Part shown: positions 10,401-59,900 of the stretch, one piece after another | Layout of the letters: each line of letters begins with the position of its first letter | Position numbering within the stretch: position 1 is the stretch's first letter | NCBI GenBank assembly: GCA_903813345.2 | Contig: CAIIXF020000008.1 | Location: forward strand, 24,848,822-24,912,821 | Origin: Owenia fusiformis | Taxonomy: Eukaryota; Annelida; Polychaeta; Sabellida; Oweniidae | DNA: 64,000 bases | Direction of reading: 5' to 3' | Position numbers and translations under genes: made by a program | Notes under the pieces: model-generated | Database searches by the model: none | What the model was told of the DNA's origin: nothing | The model's input: the letters and a program-made list of their open reading frames with translations, nothing else

Positions 10401-13400
10401 AGTAATGGCATTTAGTTTTGAAGCTTAAAAGCATTTTACTCCACCACATATGTTACCCAATATCTCTAAATATTCCGGGTTGGCATAAAAAAATGGGCAG
10501 TACTTTGTCACCTGATATCCATAACCCTCTTACCTCTACTTCTACATATTTCCACATGTGAAACCACTTATCTCCCTAATATGAAAATGAAATATTCAGT
10601 TTTATACTTTAAAAATTTTGGTAATCATCTCAAAATCAAAAACATGAGTCAAAAACAATTGTTCAGATAATTTCAATATGACGTTAATCCTTGTTACTGT
10701 TAAAAAATTGATCAACTGGTCCTCCATCTTCTCTGAAGATGGTGCACATTGACAAATCATTTTTTCAGGAATTGATTGAGATACAATAAATTGTTCAAAG
10801 ATTGACACATGTTTTTGATTTTGAAATTTTGAAATCAGAAATTTTAAAAGATAAAACTGAAATTTCATTTTTATATCAGAGAGATAACTTAAGTTTCACA
10901 TGTGCAAATTTTTAGAAGTAGAGGTAAGAGGGTTATGGAGATATCAGATGCCCAAGTACGGCCCATTATTTTATGCCAACCCAGTATATTTATTATATCG
11001 TAATATATTTATGTAAATGGTTATATGATATAACTATTAAAGAAAAAAAACTTTTCTTTAGATAAGCAGCTGGTATGAGCCAGGACAAACATGGGATTCA
11101 GTGTTCTCAGCTGTTGCATCCTCTTATGAAGAGTGCAGGGCAGAATGTGTGGGAATATACCTTTGTTTATCTGCAGAAATACTCAGGTAGCCACATAATT
11201 CTGTGTCACACATAGAAGTTTTTCACATCTCTCCTAGTCAATCTGGACAATTTTATTCCGAGTTGTCTCGATGAATCTTTTTTTTTTTATTAGTCATTAT
11301 GGTTTGATTTTGTTGACAGTTTCGCATGTGGCATCAAATCAATTGTCTGTGCATTATCCCACAAACTGCAAAATGGATTGATTTGAAATTTTCAAGTTTG
11401 TTTCATTATTTAATGCAGTCATCTTTAGGTACAATAGTGCTTTAATGCTTTGTTTGAGTGATCTCTAAACCTTTTTGACAGGGCATACAATCGTCTTGCT
11501 AACTCTTATCAACAAAAGTTAATCAGCAAATTTTCTAGGCAATCTTATCCATTGGCTTTGAAATATTGCAAGAAATCTTAACAGACTGGTCATTTGTCTG
11601 TTATTTAGGCCTGATTTCCCTCTTGAGTCTAAAGGAAGCTATAAGTAGAATTGCCCTTGAATTCAATTTGTATTATGAAATAGACTGGTTGAGTGTAAAG
11701 CTTTCAGATACTGTATAGATGTCACGTTGATGTCAAACCTAGGTTCATAGATGGAAAATATCGTTTATATTGACATAATGACATATAATTATTATTTGTA
11801 GGATATTTGGGCATGAAGGAGATACAGCTGATAATATCATTTACATCAACTGGTTGAATATGGTACGTGCGGGGCTCTGTGGACTCGAGTTTTACACACC
11901 AGAAAACCAGCAGTGGAGACAGGTGACTATATTTATTATTTACATTGAGAGTTGTCTTAGACTTTGTATTATATTGCAAAATCTAGCATGGTTCTTCATC
12001 CAGGATAAATATGGAACAAAGGTAGCATATTCTAGGTTCTAGCATCTTATGGGCAAAGGACCTCTGCTCAAGAAGACATTTACAATATTGTAGCTCATTT
12101 TAAAATGGCAAGACAGAGGTTATAATGAAAATGTGCACCAATTTTGAAGGCGCTGTCGCACTAACGCGCTATTCAGAATGATCGGTCCTAGGCCCATTTT
12201 TATATAGGACATTAATAAAGCTAGAAATGTAGATATTAAAGAAGCACATGGCAGCCATCATGAAAAATAGCGGCCTTTACTCGTTATCTTACGATTTTTG
12301 CTGTAACTCGAAAAGTAGTGGAGCGCTTTTGGTTCATATTTAGTATGTGAATACTATAAGCATGGCACACTGTCTAATGACACTTTAGGTAGAAGGCACT
12401 GTTCGATGGGATTTGCTACGCTTTGGCTTTTGCTGTTATTGCCTTGTCCATTAAGACTTGTATATTAAGGCTTGTATATTAAGAGGGTTCTGGACTTGTC
12501 TGGTTTAAACATCATTCTTGCCCAGTTTGCCATTCTCTCAAGACCCTCAAGAAGCCACTTCATGCCAATGACTGACTGGATGGTCGCAGTGATGTCATCC
12601 ATGAAGGCCCTACATAGTGGGTGTCGACTGCCATCCTGAGCAACTGGTCCTCTGCATTGGGCTTCTCCTGCTTTAAGAATGAGATTCATGGCAGCTATGG
12701 ACAGTACAACAGATACTGTACAGCCAGCCATGATGCCCTTTTCCAACCTCTGCCAGCGTGTGGTGTAATTCCCCACAGTGAAGCGCATCTTCAAGCTGTT
12801 GAGATGCCTCATTACGAGTGCCACTGCCGCAGGTGGTACATGGTAGTGGTTGATGGCTGTCTCTATCAGCTGATGTGGGACACTGGGGTATGCTTTGGCC
12901 AAGTCAAGCCAAACTAATTAGAGGGTGGTGTTGTTTTTCTGGGCCTCTTTAATCAGCTGGGTGATTGCCGCTGTATGCTTGAGGCAACCAGAGTGTCCTG
13001 GAATCCCTCCCTTCTGCACACTTGGATCAATGTAGTTGTTAACTAACAGGAAGTTGGTCAGCCGTTTTGCCACTTTTGTCCAGTAAATCTTCCCCTCGAC
13101 ATCCAGCAGTGATATTTCTCTGAACTGGGCAAGTGTCTGGGCAAGGGTGATGTCGGACATGGCAAAGGGTGTCTCTGGTTCAGCTGCTGGTATACAGTAG
13201 GGTGGTTCTCCTAGTGGTACATCTCTGGTTGGGTAGCTGTGGGAACCTTGTACACTTTTTTCAACTTGCTCTTGGAGACATTGGGACAATCCAGTCTACC
13301 ATTCTTGGGCTTCCCAAGGAGGTCTGAGGTATATGTAAATGGATTAGCAAAGAAGGCTTCCCTGGATCTTCTTTTTTCTCTTCGCTTCTTCCTCTTGGTT

Positions 13401-27059: not shown

Positions 27060-27496
27060 TATGCCTGGAATTACAAGATGGAATGATTTCAGGAATTAAT
27101 TTGAGATGAGTAACCAATTAATTAAACACGGGTGAATTGTCATATCATCATCATGCTCTGACAGTCAATGTTATGTGACTAAAGAAACTCTTCAAAATGG
27201 CATAAGCCATTTATATTCAGACTTAGGCTACTTTCCATTAATTTTGGAAGTATTAAAGTTCCAAATACATTTTTCGTCAATTACACCATCTCCCGACACC
27301 AGATAGCCCGATATGGTTAGGAAAACGATACTTTAGAATGTTATGCATCGATTGAAGTAGGGTAAATGTTCCCAACATTTCTTACATTTTTGTAAAATAC
27401 TTTTAACATGGGCTGGGAATATCAACATATGCATAGCACAGGGGCTTGTCTCGAGGCGTCGGGCAAGCCCTCCGATGAGTGTGTACTGCTTATTAA

Positions 27497-28596
27497 GAGT
27501 ATTAAGGGGGGTCGTTTTTGATGCTTCCTGAAATTTGTAGAAAATGATTGTTAGATATATCCAGTAAAAACATAAGGAATCCTTTCAATAATCAACATGC
27601 TGATTCAAACAACACTACAGTGCAAAGTTACCTAAAATGGTAGCAATCCATCCACTAATTGCTGAGAAATCTGAAGAATATGTAAAGAAGTGATTAAAAT
27701 GCAAAAGCCCACAATTTTCGCATCCTAATTATTACCTCCAGAGTCGATTTCTTCCTCAAGACACGTCCACTTTGTTTCCTTAGGTTCATTCCTGTATGTT
27801 ATTTTTAACGAAGGACAGCCTATAACAACTGCTATACGCAAAAAGATGCATGAAATTAGAAGTTTCGAAACTGAAAGTTGAAAAATGGCGACTTCCTGTG
27901 TTCTATGCGCATGCGCAAAAATGAAAGTACTTCATTCCCACGATTCAGAAGGATTCAAATTACTTTTCGGCGGTTGGTTCGGTTTTACTGAGATACCAAA
28001 TGAAAGATTATTGCCAAGGAATGGAAAACGTATTTCGAAGATGAGAATTATTTGTTTTATCACTAAAGGAAAATATTTCCGCAATATAAGGTGCATCATG
28101 GGAAGGGACTGCTGTGAAATAATGAACGCAAGTGACATCTATCTAAAAATATATGTAGTTATTGCGCATGCGTTCGCCATTTTTCAACTTTCAGTTTCGA
28201 AACTTCTAATTTCATGCATCTTTTAGCGTATAGCAGTCGTTATAGGCTGTCCTTCGTTAAAAAAAACATACAGGAATGAACCTAAGGAAACAAAGAACTC
28301 TAGGAACTACCTATTTTTAACAGTGGACGTGTCTTGAGGAAGAAATCGACTCTGGAGGTAATAATTAGGATGCGAAAATTGTGGGCTTTTGCATTTTAAT
28401 CACTTCTTTACATATTCTTCAGATTTCTCAGCAATTAGTGGATGGATTGCTACCATTTTAGGTAACTTTGCTCTGTAGTGTTGTTTGAATCAGCATGTTG
28501 ATTATTGAAAGGATTCCTTATGTTTTTACTGGATATATCTAACAATCATTTTCTACAAATTTCAGGAAGCATCAAAAACTACCCCCCTTAACACTC
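27497..28596. mobile_element. 1.1-kb palindromic element flanked by TTAA duplication
   Basis: Ends are GAGTATTAAGGGGGG and its near complement CCCCCCTTAACACTC, flanked by TTAA at 27493-27496 and 28597-28600. The opposite arm of the outer element keeps one TTAA at 30644-30647 in the context GCTTATTAAGGCGACGC, exactly the predicted empty site. The arms are about 400 bp each, with a ~260-bp unique centre. TTAA duplication is the habit of the piggyBac superfamily; a palindromic, transposase-less member is inferred. The 113-codon plus-strand frame at 27885-28226 is not similar to anything I recognise. Confidence 0.87.
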
Positions 28597-29136
28597 TTAA
28601 GGCGACGCTATATTAAATAATAAGTACAAAAAATGACTGCCATATTTTTTTGATAAAGACACATGTTTTTAAAATCTGTTTACCTTGTATATGAATTGTG
28701 TATCTTGACTAATGAAACATGTCAAAGTTAACATCACACATAAACGCATTTTTCCAAACTATGAATTGGAGGTGCATGGATCCCCAAAGCTAGCATGAAG
28801 AGTGCGAAGTGAGGCTAATTTTTGAAAGTTTCAAGGAGTAGCCTTGCAACAGTCACACATTTGCAAGAGTCTAAAGAGTCTAAAATTTCCACAAATCATC
28901 TTACCTTTCCCAGGAACAACGAAGGAGCATGAAAATGTGCACTTCTTGCATTGTTAGAGTATAATAAACCTCAAACCATTGTAAATTCCAAATATTTCAT
29001 GTCCACATTTTGTTTGCCGGAACTACTTCTAGACTTCCTGATTAATCCTCATGCAAGTTTTGTGACTACACCAAGTGGCATGGATTATCACTTGTATGTT
29101 TTATCTATTACAGTGTAATTATCATGATAGATACAC

Positions 29137-30155
29137 ACACCCGGTGATCGTGAATATGGGACGGAGGGGGGGAGCAGGCAATTTCTGCTAGGAAATTCAA
29201 CAAATCTGGAAGATTTATTTTTTCAAGAAAAAGTTTACTATTGAATTGCTAAATGGATAGGCACACGGTATGGTAGAATATGTTAGGTTTTCTGGGATTT
29301 TTTCTGAAACGATACGCATCTAAGGTATGAGATCTATTAAAAAAGGCGCAAGGCCATCAACAGGCACAAATCAACGTTTTTGCTATAAATCAAGCAACAA
29401 TGGTCTGGACGACCTGTAATAAATACTTGTAAGTGATGTTATCATAACTAAATTAATGTCATTGCTGAATTTATAAAATAAGTTTCCATATGTGAAATAA
29501 AAAATAATCGAAAATAATGAATTTGGGACGGAGGGGGGGAGGGGACGGAGGGGGGGAGCAATATGTATATAAGACATGATTAGAGATGTTTCGCGACTTT
29601 AAGTCCTTTTACTCCAAATGTCCCCATTTTTCAGTCTCCAGGGGTATATCATCCAGTTTCTTACTAAGTTAATGAGTTAATTTTTCAAATACAAGAATTC
29701 GTGTGAAGTTGTTTCACTTTATAGAATTATTACTCCCCCCCCTCCGTCCCCTCCCCCCCTCCGTCCCATTTTAATTATTTTCGATTATTTTTTATTTTAC
29801 GTATGGAAACTTATTTTATAAATTCAGCAATGACATTAATTTAGTTATGATAACATCACTTACAAGTATTTATTACAGGTCGTGTAGTCCATTGTTGCTT
29901 GATTTATAGCAAAAACTTTGACTTTTGCACGTTGGTTGGGTTGCGCCTTTTTTAATAGATCTTATATCTTAAAAGAGTATCGGTTGAAAAATAATCCTAG
30001 AATACCTAACATATTTTATCATACCGTGCGCTTATTCAATTTGCAATTCAATCGTAAACTCTGTCTTGAAAAAATAATTTTACCAGATTTGTTGAATTTT
30101 CTAGCGGAAATTGCCTGCTCCCCCCCTCCGTCCCATTTTCACGATCACCGGGTGT
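29137..30155. mobile_element. 1.0-kb palindromic element with G-rich tracts
   Basis: Termini are ACACCCGGTGATCGTGAA and the complement ending at 30155. Possible flanks are GATACAC (29130-29136) and GATACAT (30156-30162), one mismatch. The arms (29137-29560 and 29736-30155) include ATTTTTTATTTTACGTATGG-type pairing. The phrase GGGACGGAGGGGGGGAG occurs at the outer end of each arm and twice at the inner ends. Inserted near the centre of the 27429-30711 element. Confidence 0.82.
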
Positions 30156-31096
30156 GATACATGATAGAGGCTTTATGAATGATAAACAATGGAAACATGA
30201 ATGAAGATAACTCTGGACTAAAAAATAGTTCCAGGAAACAAAATGGTGGACATGAAATATTTAGAATTCACAATGGTTTGAGCTTTATTATACTCTAACA
30301 ATGCAAGAAGTACACATTTTCGTGCTCCTTCGTTGTTCCTTGGTAAGGTAAGATGATTTGTGGAAATTTTAGACTCTTGCAAATGTGTGACTGTTGCAAG
30401 GCTACTCCTTGAAACTTTCAAAAATTAGCCTCACTTCGCACTCTTCATGCTAGCTTTGGGGATCCATGCACCTCCAATTCATAGTTTGGAAAAATGCGTT
30501 TATGTGTGATGTTAACTTTGACATGTTTCATTAGTCAAGATACACAATTCATATACAAGGTAAACAGATTTTAAAAACATGTGTCTTTATCAAAAAAAAT
30601 ATGGCAGTCATTTTTTGTACTTTTTATTTAATATAGCGTCGCCTTAATAAGCAGTACACACTCATCGGAGAGCTTGTCCGACGCCTCGAGACAAGCCCCT
30701 GTGATGCATTGCCATCTATCTAAAGATGGCTATGTGCAAATATAGTAATCTGAGACTATGATGGTCTCGAATCTGTTTGATACATACTAAAGTCATGCCT
30801 AACAAGTTCAGATTTTCTATGTTAACGGTACTTCTGCTGTCAATAGACAGGTGTGTTCAGTAAGATCTAATTAAGCTAACTTTTTGACTAGCACTAAATT
30901 TACACAAATTGATTGAAAAATTTTGAGATATCTGGAAGGTAAACTGGGAGATGAAGCTCAACAAAAAGGTCAAATTACCTTAATTATGGAAGCAAACTCT
31001 AGGGAAAGTAATATATTATCTTTTGAAATGTTAAAATGTGCGAATATAATAACAAAATGTTGGGATTTTGGCCGATTTTAAAACTAAATTCCTAAC

Positions 31097-56958: not shown

Positions 56959-59900
56959 ATGCCTGAGCCAGGAGCGCAACCGCAAGAAGATAGCGAGGCT
57001 GAGACCTTCGCCTTTCAGGCTGAGATTGCTCAGTTGATGAGCTTGATTATCAACACATTTTACTCAAACAAAGAGATCTTTCTCAGAGAAATAATCTCAA
57101 ATGCCTCTGATGCCCTTGATAAAATCCGTTATGAGAGTCTCACAAACCCCTCACAATTGGATACTGGCAAAGACCTGGAGATCAAGCTTATCCCTGATGC
57201 TAATGGCAAAACATTGACCATTTGTGATACTGGAATTGGCATGACTAAAGCTGATTTGGTGAACAATCTAGGAACAATTGCAAAATCTGGAACCAAAGCC
57301 TTCATGGAGGCACTTCAGGTAATTTTCTTATATTTCCAGAATATTCTGTGGAGTTAAGCTGCCATGATACTTAACAGGAAATGACAAAACAGGAAGTGAC
57401 AAAAATATTTGCATTTTTTGAACAAAGATAACAGAGTTCTGTTTCTGAACTCTGTTATCTTTGTTCAAAAATGTCTAAAAATGCCACATTTTTGTCACTT
57501 CCTGTTTTGTCATGTCCTGTTAAGTACCACTGCACCTTAAATTGTGGGAAACCTTTTGAGGGCCATGAAGTGCTAACCGATGAATCAGTTATATTAAAAT
57601 GATATATTAGAATATTTTTCAATTTGTAAGATATTTTGACTAGAGTCCATTTCAGTGCTTCAGTTCGTCAGTAGAACGGCAAAAATAAGAAATTGGGAGA
57701 CCATTGTGCAATAATATATGGAAAAGTATATTCATAATGTACATGAATGACATTTGTATATCTTGGATTGCTTCTAGTTTGGCTTATAAAGTGTATGGCC
57801 TCTTATATTTGGATGTTTCTCTGCCATGTTATTTTCAATAAGATTAACATGGCTGAAATTCTTCAAATTACAAGACGACACAGACTTATTGCACAAAAGA
57901 CTAAAAAATCTGAAATATACAAATGTCATTCAAGTACATTATGAATATACTTTTCCATATATTATTGCACAATGGTCTCCCAATTTCTTATTTTTGCCGT
58001 TCTACTGACGAACTGAAGCAGTGAAATGGACTCTAGGGCACGCCTAACCATCGACAACGTACAGTGACAAGATATACCATTGTACACTTTAGGGTGTCAT
58101 TATTAACTGATTAGAACCGAAAACTATGTTGTAGGTTTGATTGTGGTTTTGAAAAATTAATTTGAGGAGTACATAAAGGATTTCATGTTTGATTTTGTGT
58201 GTATTCGATTCGGAAGACATTTACCTTTCTTATTATGTTAAAAGATTTTCGAGCAGTGCTCGATTTTTTCGTTGTTAATCTACCCATGTAATTCGTCGAT
58301 TGGAAAATGTGTTTTTTACACATTTCCTTTGATCATTATCTCCCTTGTCGTCTAAGGGGCGGGGTCAAAATATCGATGTTCATATGGAGACGAAAGTACT
58401 TTCGCGAGGGGGGAGGGGGTTTTTGGGCACTTTCGTTGACCAAAAAACATCGATAATTCGGATCTGATATACAAAAAATAATTGGACTTACCCACTTTTT
58501 CTGGCGCTATGTTCTGATAAAAAGGCTTGTTTTCAATAGTTCGTGAGCTTTTTTGTGTGATAGGTCCAAAATATCGGTAGATAAAGACGATAATTTGATC
58601 ATTTTTCAAATAAATTCCGTACTTTTCCCTCCTCCTTTTGAAGAGTTCAATGCAGTTAAATTGCGAACGTGTGTTAATTCACCGTAATAATAACCCGGCA
58701 AATAGGATACGATTATGCCTCTCAAAATCAATGTTTTTTTGAAGTGACCTAAGCTTTCCTCTAGAGGGGGGGGGGGTGGGGGGGTTGTTGTCCAAACGAA
58801 ATTACTTTCGTCTCCATATGAACATTGATATTTTGACCCCGCCCCTAAGAGTGCTGAATATTTTTATGAGAATATTTTTCTCTAAACTACACAATCTAAG
58901 ACTGTTGAAGGTTTTATAAATATTCATGTATTTGGTATAATTTAAAAAATCAAAAATGAACGTTGTCATTTCCAATGTACGTTGTCCCTGTAATTGAAAT
59001 GTAAACGATGCAATGCAGTGATTGCGCTAGGCCTAATAAATTTTGAGTACTTCATACCCAGGTCACTTCAAAAAATGGGGTACAAATAATTATTTTGGGG
59101 TACTTTTTGAAAATCGCTGCAGCGAGCTTTTGTGGTAAAAACATTTTTTATGTCCCCTCATGTACTCATGCATTGCAAGTCATTCCTGTTTACCTTCTTC
59201 TGAGGCCTCCACTAAGTCCCTGTAACTTACCTTCCATGGCTAAGGTACCATCCATGGAATCTCCCTCTCCCAAACACCCCACCCCATGATTCATCTTGCA
59301 ACTTTAGATTACCTCTCGAGACTAAACTGTAGCTCAAATTCTAATATCATGAAAAAACATAAAAGTCAAGGAGTCATGAACATCTGTTGCCTTCTTGATG
59401 TGCCACGCCCACCCTGAAGTGTAGTGATGTGGAACGGCACTTAAGTATAATTATCAATTTTTGACGCGAGTTTTACATAAATAACCTACCTCAATAAGTT
59501 CCTGAGTATTTTACGAACGAAGAAATTATCGTTTTTTTTATCGAAAATTTGTCGCGGCTTATGACATCCGGGTATGGTGCTTGCACCAGATTGCTGCAGT
59601 CGGTAGGCTCAAATAGCCGTGGTTATTTGAATGCAGTCCCGCCGATTCAAGTGGCCATCCAAAGTATTTAAGAAGAATCTAACATGGTGATCATCTATAT
59701 AAGGGTTAATTATCTCCATTTACCGTGAACAAGTTGATTCCTCACGGCTGTACAGTGCAGATTATAAAATAATAATCATTTCACGCCAACGGTCCTGCGG
59801 AAAACATTCTGCAGCTGCATACGTTTGCTACAAGAATTTTGATTAGCTTAATAACCGGAAGACAAATATTATGCACGAATCAGATTGATCGTTATGTTAT

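What the first reader, a model, noticed from the sequence alone, without database searches (positions are those of the whole stretch)
27429..30711. Three palindromic elements nested inside one another, with an internal empty-site control
A fold-back element (outer arms) carries a second palindrome in its left arm and a third at its centre. The right arm is uninterrupted, so it records the pre-insertion sequence: GCTTATTAAGGCGACGC there becomes TTAA-[1100 bp]-TTAA on the left. This proves the inner block moved as a unit and duplicated TTAA. The seen facts are the arms and the duplicated TTAA; assignment to the piggyBac superfamily is inference from that target choice. The insert being itself a full palindrome is unusual for that group.
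Basis: partly seen in the sequence, partly recalled or inferred. Interest (0 to 1): 0.75.

Follow-up and report, generated by a model that had tools for sequence, protein, structure and literature searches.

The report
Three nested palindromic transposons

Summary
The nest is real, but its polarity is the reverse of what was proposed. Three repeat families of a 498-Mb genome are stacked.

E1 (27437-30703) runs CACAGGGGCTTGTC...GACAAGCCCCTGTG with 8-bp target duplications. E2 (28601-30643) runs GGCGACGC...GCGTCGCC with TTAA duplications and lies in E1's right arm. E3 (29136-30156) runs CACACCCGG...CCGGGTGTG with 5-bp duplications and lies in E2's loop.

The 1.1-kb "GAGT block" called a TTAA insert is the body of E1. 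In the 38 other loci scored (40 of 475 candidates were scored), 52 of 54 body ends join the "outer arm"; none shows TTAA followed by foreign DNA. The "uninterrupted" right arm is itself the E1/E2 junction; the intact empty site is in the left arm, CTTATTAAGAG. Empty sites elsewhere: 52 of 56 E1 loci for E2, 20 of 20 E2 copies for E3.

E2's GG...CC ends and TTAA fit the published Kolobok rule rather than piggyBac. No transposase partner was found.

Verdict: ordinary nested MITE/foldback elements. More interesting in passing: E1 copies occur as A/B, A/A and B/B arm combinations, all 12 typed with perfect duplications.

The parts
27429..27436 (.). Left 8-bp target-site duplication of E1 (ATGCATAG; right copy ATGCATTG)
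   Evidence: 8-bp duplication perfect in 23 of 26 delimited E1 copies, window (7 of 8 bases) counted as not perfect (21 of 23; L098 and L101 yes, L099 no)
27437..28596 (+).
   Evidence: outer arm and GAGT body are one contiguous repeat family
27493..27496 (+). TTAA in the intact left arm of E1 = the real internal empty site for E2
   Evidence: the joined E1 flanks of E2 run through in 52 of 56 fetched E1 loci
28597..28600 (+). Left TTAA target duplication of E2
28601..30643 (+). E2, a TTAA-duplicating palindromic element with ends GGCGACGC...GCGTCGCC (995-1010 bp in the fetched copies, 2043 bp here because E3 lies inside)
   Evidence: inserted in the right arm of E1
29131..29135 (+). Left 5-bp target duplication of E3 (ATACA)
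29136..30156 (+). E3, a palindromic element with ends CACACCCGGTGATCGTGA...TCACGATCACCGGGTGTG, inserted in the loop of E2
   Evidence: empty site in 20 of 20 E2 copies
30157..30161 (+). Right 5-bp target duplication of E3 (ATACA)
30644..30647 (+). Right TTAA target duplication of E2
30648..30703 (+). E1, outer 56 bp of its right arm, cut off from the rest of E1 by E2; ends GACAAGCCCCTGTG
30704..30711 (.). Right 8-bp target-site duplication of E1 (ATGCATTG)

Best explanation
A three-level nest of non-autonomous long-inverted-repeat DNA transposons, built from the outside in. First E1 (about 1.22 kb without its guest) inserted and made an 8-bp duplication. Then E2 inserted into a TTAA of E1's right arm and duplicated it. 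Then E3 inserted into the loop of E2 and duplicated ATACA. Shown: the boundaries, the duplications, the family copies elsewhere and the empty sites. Inferred: that each was moved by cut-and-paste by a transposase supplied from another locus, three different ones because the three duplication lengths (8, 4, 5 bp) and the ends differ, and that E2 is Kolobok-type.
For: E1 arm and body are contiguous at 52 of 54 body ends over 38 loci. The two exceptions are a partly deleted arm (L084) and a body cut off without TTAA (L087). E1 8-bp duplications are perfect in 23 of 26 copies with both ends found. E2 has TTAA on both sides in 21 of 22 copies, window and L079 included. E3 has a 5-bp duplication in 19 of 21 copies, window included. 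Host flanks of E3 joined without E3 match all 20 fetched E2 copies through the junction, 19 of them gapless at 99.4-100%. Host flanks of E2 joined without E2 run through uninterrupted in 52 of 56 E1 loci. A second E1 copy, L079, carries E2 at the equivalent TTAA of its arm, with E1 sequence on both sides. The five size-expanded copies fetched hold no long frame: of four frames of 100 aa or more, three lie in the 8-kb insert of L100 and one (104 aa, L102) runs from flanking DNA into the end of E3.
Against: No autonomous partner was found for any of the three, so the transposases are inferred. The window's E1 duplication is 7 of 8, not perfect. L061 and L099 have E1 ends without matching duplications, and L034 and L038 lack the 5-bp E3 duplication. 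Searches scored only 40 candidates each (of 475 for the E1 body, 524 for E2, 3195 for the whole region), so odd copies may be unseen. Long reads were not available, so the assembly could only be checked by the logic of the junctions.
Confidence: 0.95

Rival explanations
1. One reading: the 1.1-kb GAGT palindrome is a piggyBac-type TTAA transposon that inserted into the left arm of a fold-back element whose right arm kept the empty site.
For: TTAA on both sides of the block in the window; the block is multi-copy.
Against: In the 38 other loci scored the block never occurs as an independent TTAA-flanked unit. The right-arm family (E2) ends at the supposed empty site in its other copies. The E1 8-bp duplications lie outside arm + body together.
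Confidence: 0.02
2. Insertion was directed to palindrome centres (cruciform loops), which would explain why guests sit inside palindromes.
For: E3 lies in the loop of E2. L098 carries a further palindromic block of about 4 kb in the loop of an E1 copy.
Against: Flanks of E3 copies are mutually inverted over 20 bp or more in 1 of 21 (the window only), and flanks of E2 copies in 0 of 20. E2 in the window and in L079 sits in an arm, not the loop.
Confidence: 0.04
3. Assembly artefact: collapsed or misjoined repeats produced the nest.
For: All three families are multi-copy and palindromic, which is hard to assemble.
Against: All three levels are bounded by duplications of the length usual for their family (the outermost 7 of 8), and the empty sites exist elsewhere. 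L079 repeats the E2-in-E1 join at another locus.
Confidence: 0.03

Closest known systems
Kolobok superfamily, non-autonomous (e.g. the T2-MITE family of Xenopus) - for E2
   Same: TTAA duplication; ends 5'-RR...YY-3' (E2: GG...CC); non-coding, multi-copy (PMC9587614 and PMC6004289, passages).
   Different: E2 does not show the AGGRR motif of T2-MITEs. Its two arms make up nearly the whole element. No Kolobok transposase partner was identified.
piggyBac superfamily - considered for E2 and for the GAGT block
   Same: TTAA duplication.
   Different: E2 ends in GG; the piggyBac elements delimited in this genome begin with CT or CC (2 of 6 loci). The GAGT block shows no TTAA duplication of its own.
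Foldback / long-TIR elements such as Galileo (P superfamily) and Tetris (Drosophila) - for E1
   Same: Long inverted arms, variable non-coding centre, duplications of similar length (E1 8 bp, Tetris 8-10 bp, Galileo 7 bp), signs of arm exchange between copies (PMC3573991, PMC4079207, passages).
   Different: E1's end motif was not found at the 4 P-type and 6 hAT loci examined. Mixed-arm E1 copies keep perfect duplications, whereas the chimeric Galileo copies described do not.
Non-autonomous elements with 5-bp duplications (hAT5-like, Transib/RAG-like; names partly recalled) - for E3
   Same: 5-bp duplication; ends begin with CAC/CA (recalled for these groups).
   Different: E3's duplications are A+T-rich. 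PF12940 (RAG1) gave no match, but its control rang nowhere, so this tests little.

Membership tests
Kolobok (E2) | TTAA target-site duplication | tested here: met
   21 of 22 copies have TTAA on both sides; one (L007) TTAA/ATAA
Kolobok (E2) | termini 5'-RR and YY-3' | tested here: met
   GG...CC in the 22 examined copies, which were delimited by their end motifs, so this is not independent of the choice; rule from PMC9587614 (passages)
Kolobok (E2) | moved by a Kolobok DDD/E transposase | not tested
   no autonomous relative with the same ends identified; no Kolobok model searched
piggyBac (GAGT block) | TTAA target-site duplication of the block itself | tested here: not met
   0 of 54 ends in 38 loci show TTAA next to foreign DNA
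piggyBac (E2) | ends shared with an autonomous piggyBac element of the genome | tested here: inconclusive
   6 loci with long PF13843 frames examined; none has the exact 7-base E2 end, 2 delimited with CT/CC ends, 4 not delimited; L108 has diverged E2 fragments on one side of its frame; 6 of 113 matches fetched
hAT (E1) | 8-bp duplication | tested here: met
   23 of 26 copies perfect
hAT (E1) | ends shared with an autonomous hAT | tested here: inconclusive
   6 loci around PF05699 matches; 3 delimited, all TAG-ended; none has CACAGGGG; 6 of 138 matches fetched
P superfamily (E1) | ends shared with an autonomous P element | tested here: inconclusive
   4 of 13 PF21787 matches fetched; none delimited, none has CACAGGGGC
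Transib / RAG-like (E3) | RAG1/Transib-type transposase in the genome | tested here: inconclusive
   PF12940: no match, but no control rang either

The most novel reading that the evidence does not exclude
E1 remakes its own palindrome. Within one subfamily, two arm types (A and B, 58 diagnostic alignment columns) occur as A/B, A/A and B/B elements, and each form is flanked by its own perfect 8-bp duplication, so each was mobile as such. That would mean arm-to-arm conversion or template switching is part of, or tightly coupled to, this element's transposition cycle rather than a later scar, and that perfect palindromes are continually regenerated.
Probability: 0.25. Interest if true: 0.5.

Novelty: new member of a known kind. 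Interest (0 to 1): 0.25.

Why it matters
The case corrects an insertion polarity that looked proven from one locus: a TTAA on both sides of a block does not show that this block moved, and copies elsewhere decide it. It yields three bounded repeat families with duplication lengths 8, 4 and 5 bp and their order of insertion, useful for annotating this genome. The A/B, A/A, B/B arm combinations of E1 offer a natural test of how palindromic transposons keep their arms alike.

Tried and rejected
GAGT block as an independent TTAA element: rejected. Palindrome-centre targeting: flanks of E2 (0 of 20) and E3 (1 of 21, the window itself) are not palindromic.

Autonomous partners by size: five widely spaced pairs of exact ends were fetched (L098, L099, L101 for E1; L100 for E2; L102 for E3), chosen from the listed places only (the first 100 of 149, 132 and 653); other wide pairs, such as a 2.3-kb one of E2 on C6 and 2.1-kb ones of E1 on C2 and C5, were not fetched. 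The five hold further insertions or expansions. Their only open frames of at least 100 aa (three in L100, one in L102) look like no transposase by eye and were not searched.

Autonomous partners by transposase family: the piggyBac, P and hAT loci fetched show none of the three end pairs. Single matches were a 9-base E1-like motif in L111, a 7-base one in L113, a neighbouring E3 copy in L110 and diverged E2 fragments on one side of the frame in L108. RAG1 gave nothing and no control rang.

Two E2 insertions at the equivalent TTAA of E1 (window, L079): the window's E1 has 9 TTAA and L062 has 8, two of which are the equivalent arm sites, so two hits there need no hotspot.

Text search for four end strings found only two papers, both on mouse or human biology by title or abstract start (listing only). 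So the families were not found under those strings in that library; other names or strings were not searched. Sola3, another TTAA group (recalled), was not tested.

Full report
Setting. The window is G000:C8:24848822-24912821 of a 498-Mb assembly in 525 contigs, by its size a eukaryote. The window also holds a reverse-transcriptase fragment and an HSP90-like exon.

The observation. Inverted arms, a palindromic block on the left, a palindromic centre and TTAA on both sides of the left block are all there.

Which piece moved. A genome search with the right arm alone (40 of 524 candidates scored) shows otherwise. In 37 of the 39 other top places the match stops at query position 488-492, that is, window 30647-30651, at the end of ...GCGTCGCC-TTAA; in the other two it stops at 471 and 474. 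Twenty of these copies were fetched. They lie in different flanks, begin GGCGACGC and end GTCGCC; 19 have TTAA on both sides and one (L007) TTAA/ATAA. So the inner part of the 'arm' is an element of its own, E2, and the supposed empty site GCTTATTAAGGCGACGC is the E1/E2 junction.

The GAGT block. A genome search with the block (40 of 475 candidates scored) listed, besides the window, places in 38 separate loci; all 38 were fetched. Of 54 block ends present in them, 52 are directly joined to the 60-bp 'outer arm'. In L084 the joint is there but the arm is cut after some ten bases, and in L087 the block itself is cut, without TTAA at the edge. A search with the outer arm alone (40 of 165 candidates scored) found many of the same loci and others that, when fetched, mostly also carry body sequence. 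Arm and block are therefore one family, E1, with ends CACAGGGGCTTGTC and 8-bp duplications outside. Of 58 sequences scanned (57 loci and the window), 23 had both ends by my motif and 21 of these a perfect duplication; the window has 7 of 8 bases and L061 none. Of three more, two are perfect. The TTAA beside the GAGT block is an internal sequence of E1.

Order of events. The left arm of E1 in the window keeps the empty site CTTATTAAGAG (27489-27499). The right arm holds E2 between two TTAA. The E1 flanks of E2, joined with one TTAA, match 52 of 56 other E1 loci without interruption; the exceptions are L065 and L073 (centre-deleted copies) and L084 and L087 (truncated) (L079 was left out because it carries E2). 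L079 is a second E1 with E2 at the equivalent TTAA; its body start (GAGAAAAAGGG) is of another E1 type than the window's, so the two insertions look independent. E3 lies in E2's loop between two ATACA. The E2 flanks joined without it match all 20 E2 copies, 19 without gaps at 99.4-100% and one (L016) at 93% with gaps. E3 copies elsewhere have 5-bp duplications in 18 of 20; L034 has four bases and L038 none.

Copy numbers. Exact end motifs: E1 149 (reversed-pattern control 1), E2 132 (0), E3 653 (0). These count ends, so complete copies are fewer.

What they are. E2's TTAA and GG...CC ends meet the two features that PMC9587614 (passages) gives for Kolobok and by which it separates Kolobok from piggyBac. 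The piggyBac elements of this genome that I could delimit (2 of 6 fetched, of 113 matches) begin with CT and CC. E1's 8-bp duplication fits hAT, P and some foldback elements. The three hAT elements that could be delimited (of 6 fetched, 138 matches) begin with TAG, and the four P-type loci (of 13 matches) showed no E1 ends, so E1 stays unassigned. E3's superfamily is open. The mechanism, cut-and-paste in trans, is inference from the duplications and the lack of coding capacity.

Arms. Within-copy arm identity averages 0.89 for E1 (20 copies, 330 bp; two of them, L060 and L101, near 0.56, probably because one arm is rearranged), 0.94 for E2 (20) and 0.88 for E3 (20). Between copies it is 0.84 for E1 (left against left, orientation not matched, so not strictly comparable) and 0.988 and 0.979 for E2 and E3 (orientation matched). 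So the fetched E2 and E3 copies amplified with arms that already differed. E1 behaves otherwise. L050 was compared only and belongs to neither type closely; copies without both ends (such as L048, L055, L056) were not typed. All twelve have perfect 8-bp duplications. Chimeric Galileo copies in Drosophila, the nearest published case I saw (passages), lack matching duplications and were put down to recombination or conversion between copies. Here the forms were mobile as such. A single ancestral conversion followed by amplification explains this as well as repeated conversion, and I did not separate the two.

Verdict. The nest is ordinary and explained down to the transposases, which remain unknown; the interpretation given was inverted in polarity and, most likely, wrong in family.

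Noticed in passing
L042-L047, L049, L051-L054, L098 (E1 copies): One E1 subfamily occurs with arm combinations A/B (6 copies), A/A (5) and B/B (1), switching at 58 diagnostic columns nearly as a block, all 12 with perfect 8-bp duplications.
   Followed up: partly
L065 (G000:C6:17648216-17648653) and L073 (G000:C9:6229600-6229950): Minimal E1 derivatives: L065 is a 132-bp near-perfect palindrome made of the two arms and a short loop, with a perfect 8-bp duplication; L073 is about 100 bp and asymmetric.
   Followed up: partly
L079 (G000:C11:33186108-33187666): Second, apparently independent insertion of E2 into the equivalent TTAA of an E1 arm.
   Followed up: yes
L098 (G000:C2:15248457-15254131): An E1 copy with a palindromic block of about 4 kb in its loop (arms 556 at 87%), with further short inverted pairs inside; no E2 or E3 match.
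   Followed up: partly
window 29136-30156: E3 carries a G-rich motif GGGACGGAGGGGG, three copies per half in inverted orientation (two of them 17 bp apart near the loop); also in L021 and L030, and in L040 with two in one half.
   Followed up: no
window 12465-12917 (-): Reverse-transcriptase fragment (PF00078, E 1.7e-9), probably a retrotransposon remnant.
   Followed up: no
window 56959-57357 (+): Exon resembling the ATPase end of HSP90 (Pfam HATPase matches slightly under the curated cut-off; HSP90 by eye).
   Followed up: no
L108 (G000:C12:32187400-32192200): Diverged E2 fragments lie beside a long open piggyBac-type frame, all on one side of it.
   Followed up: no
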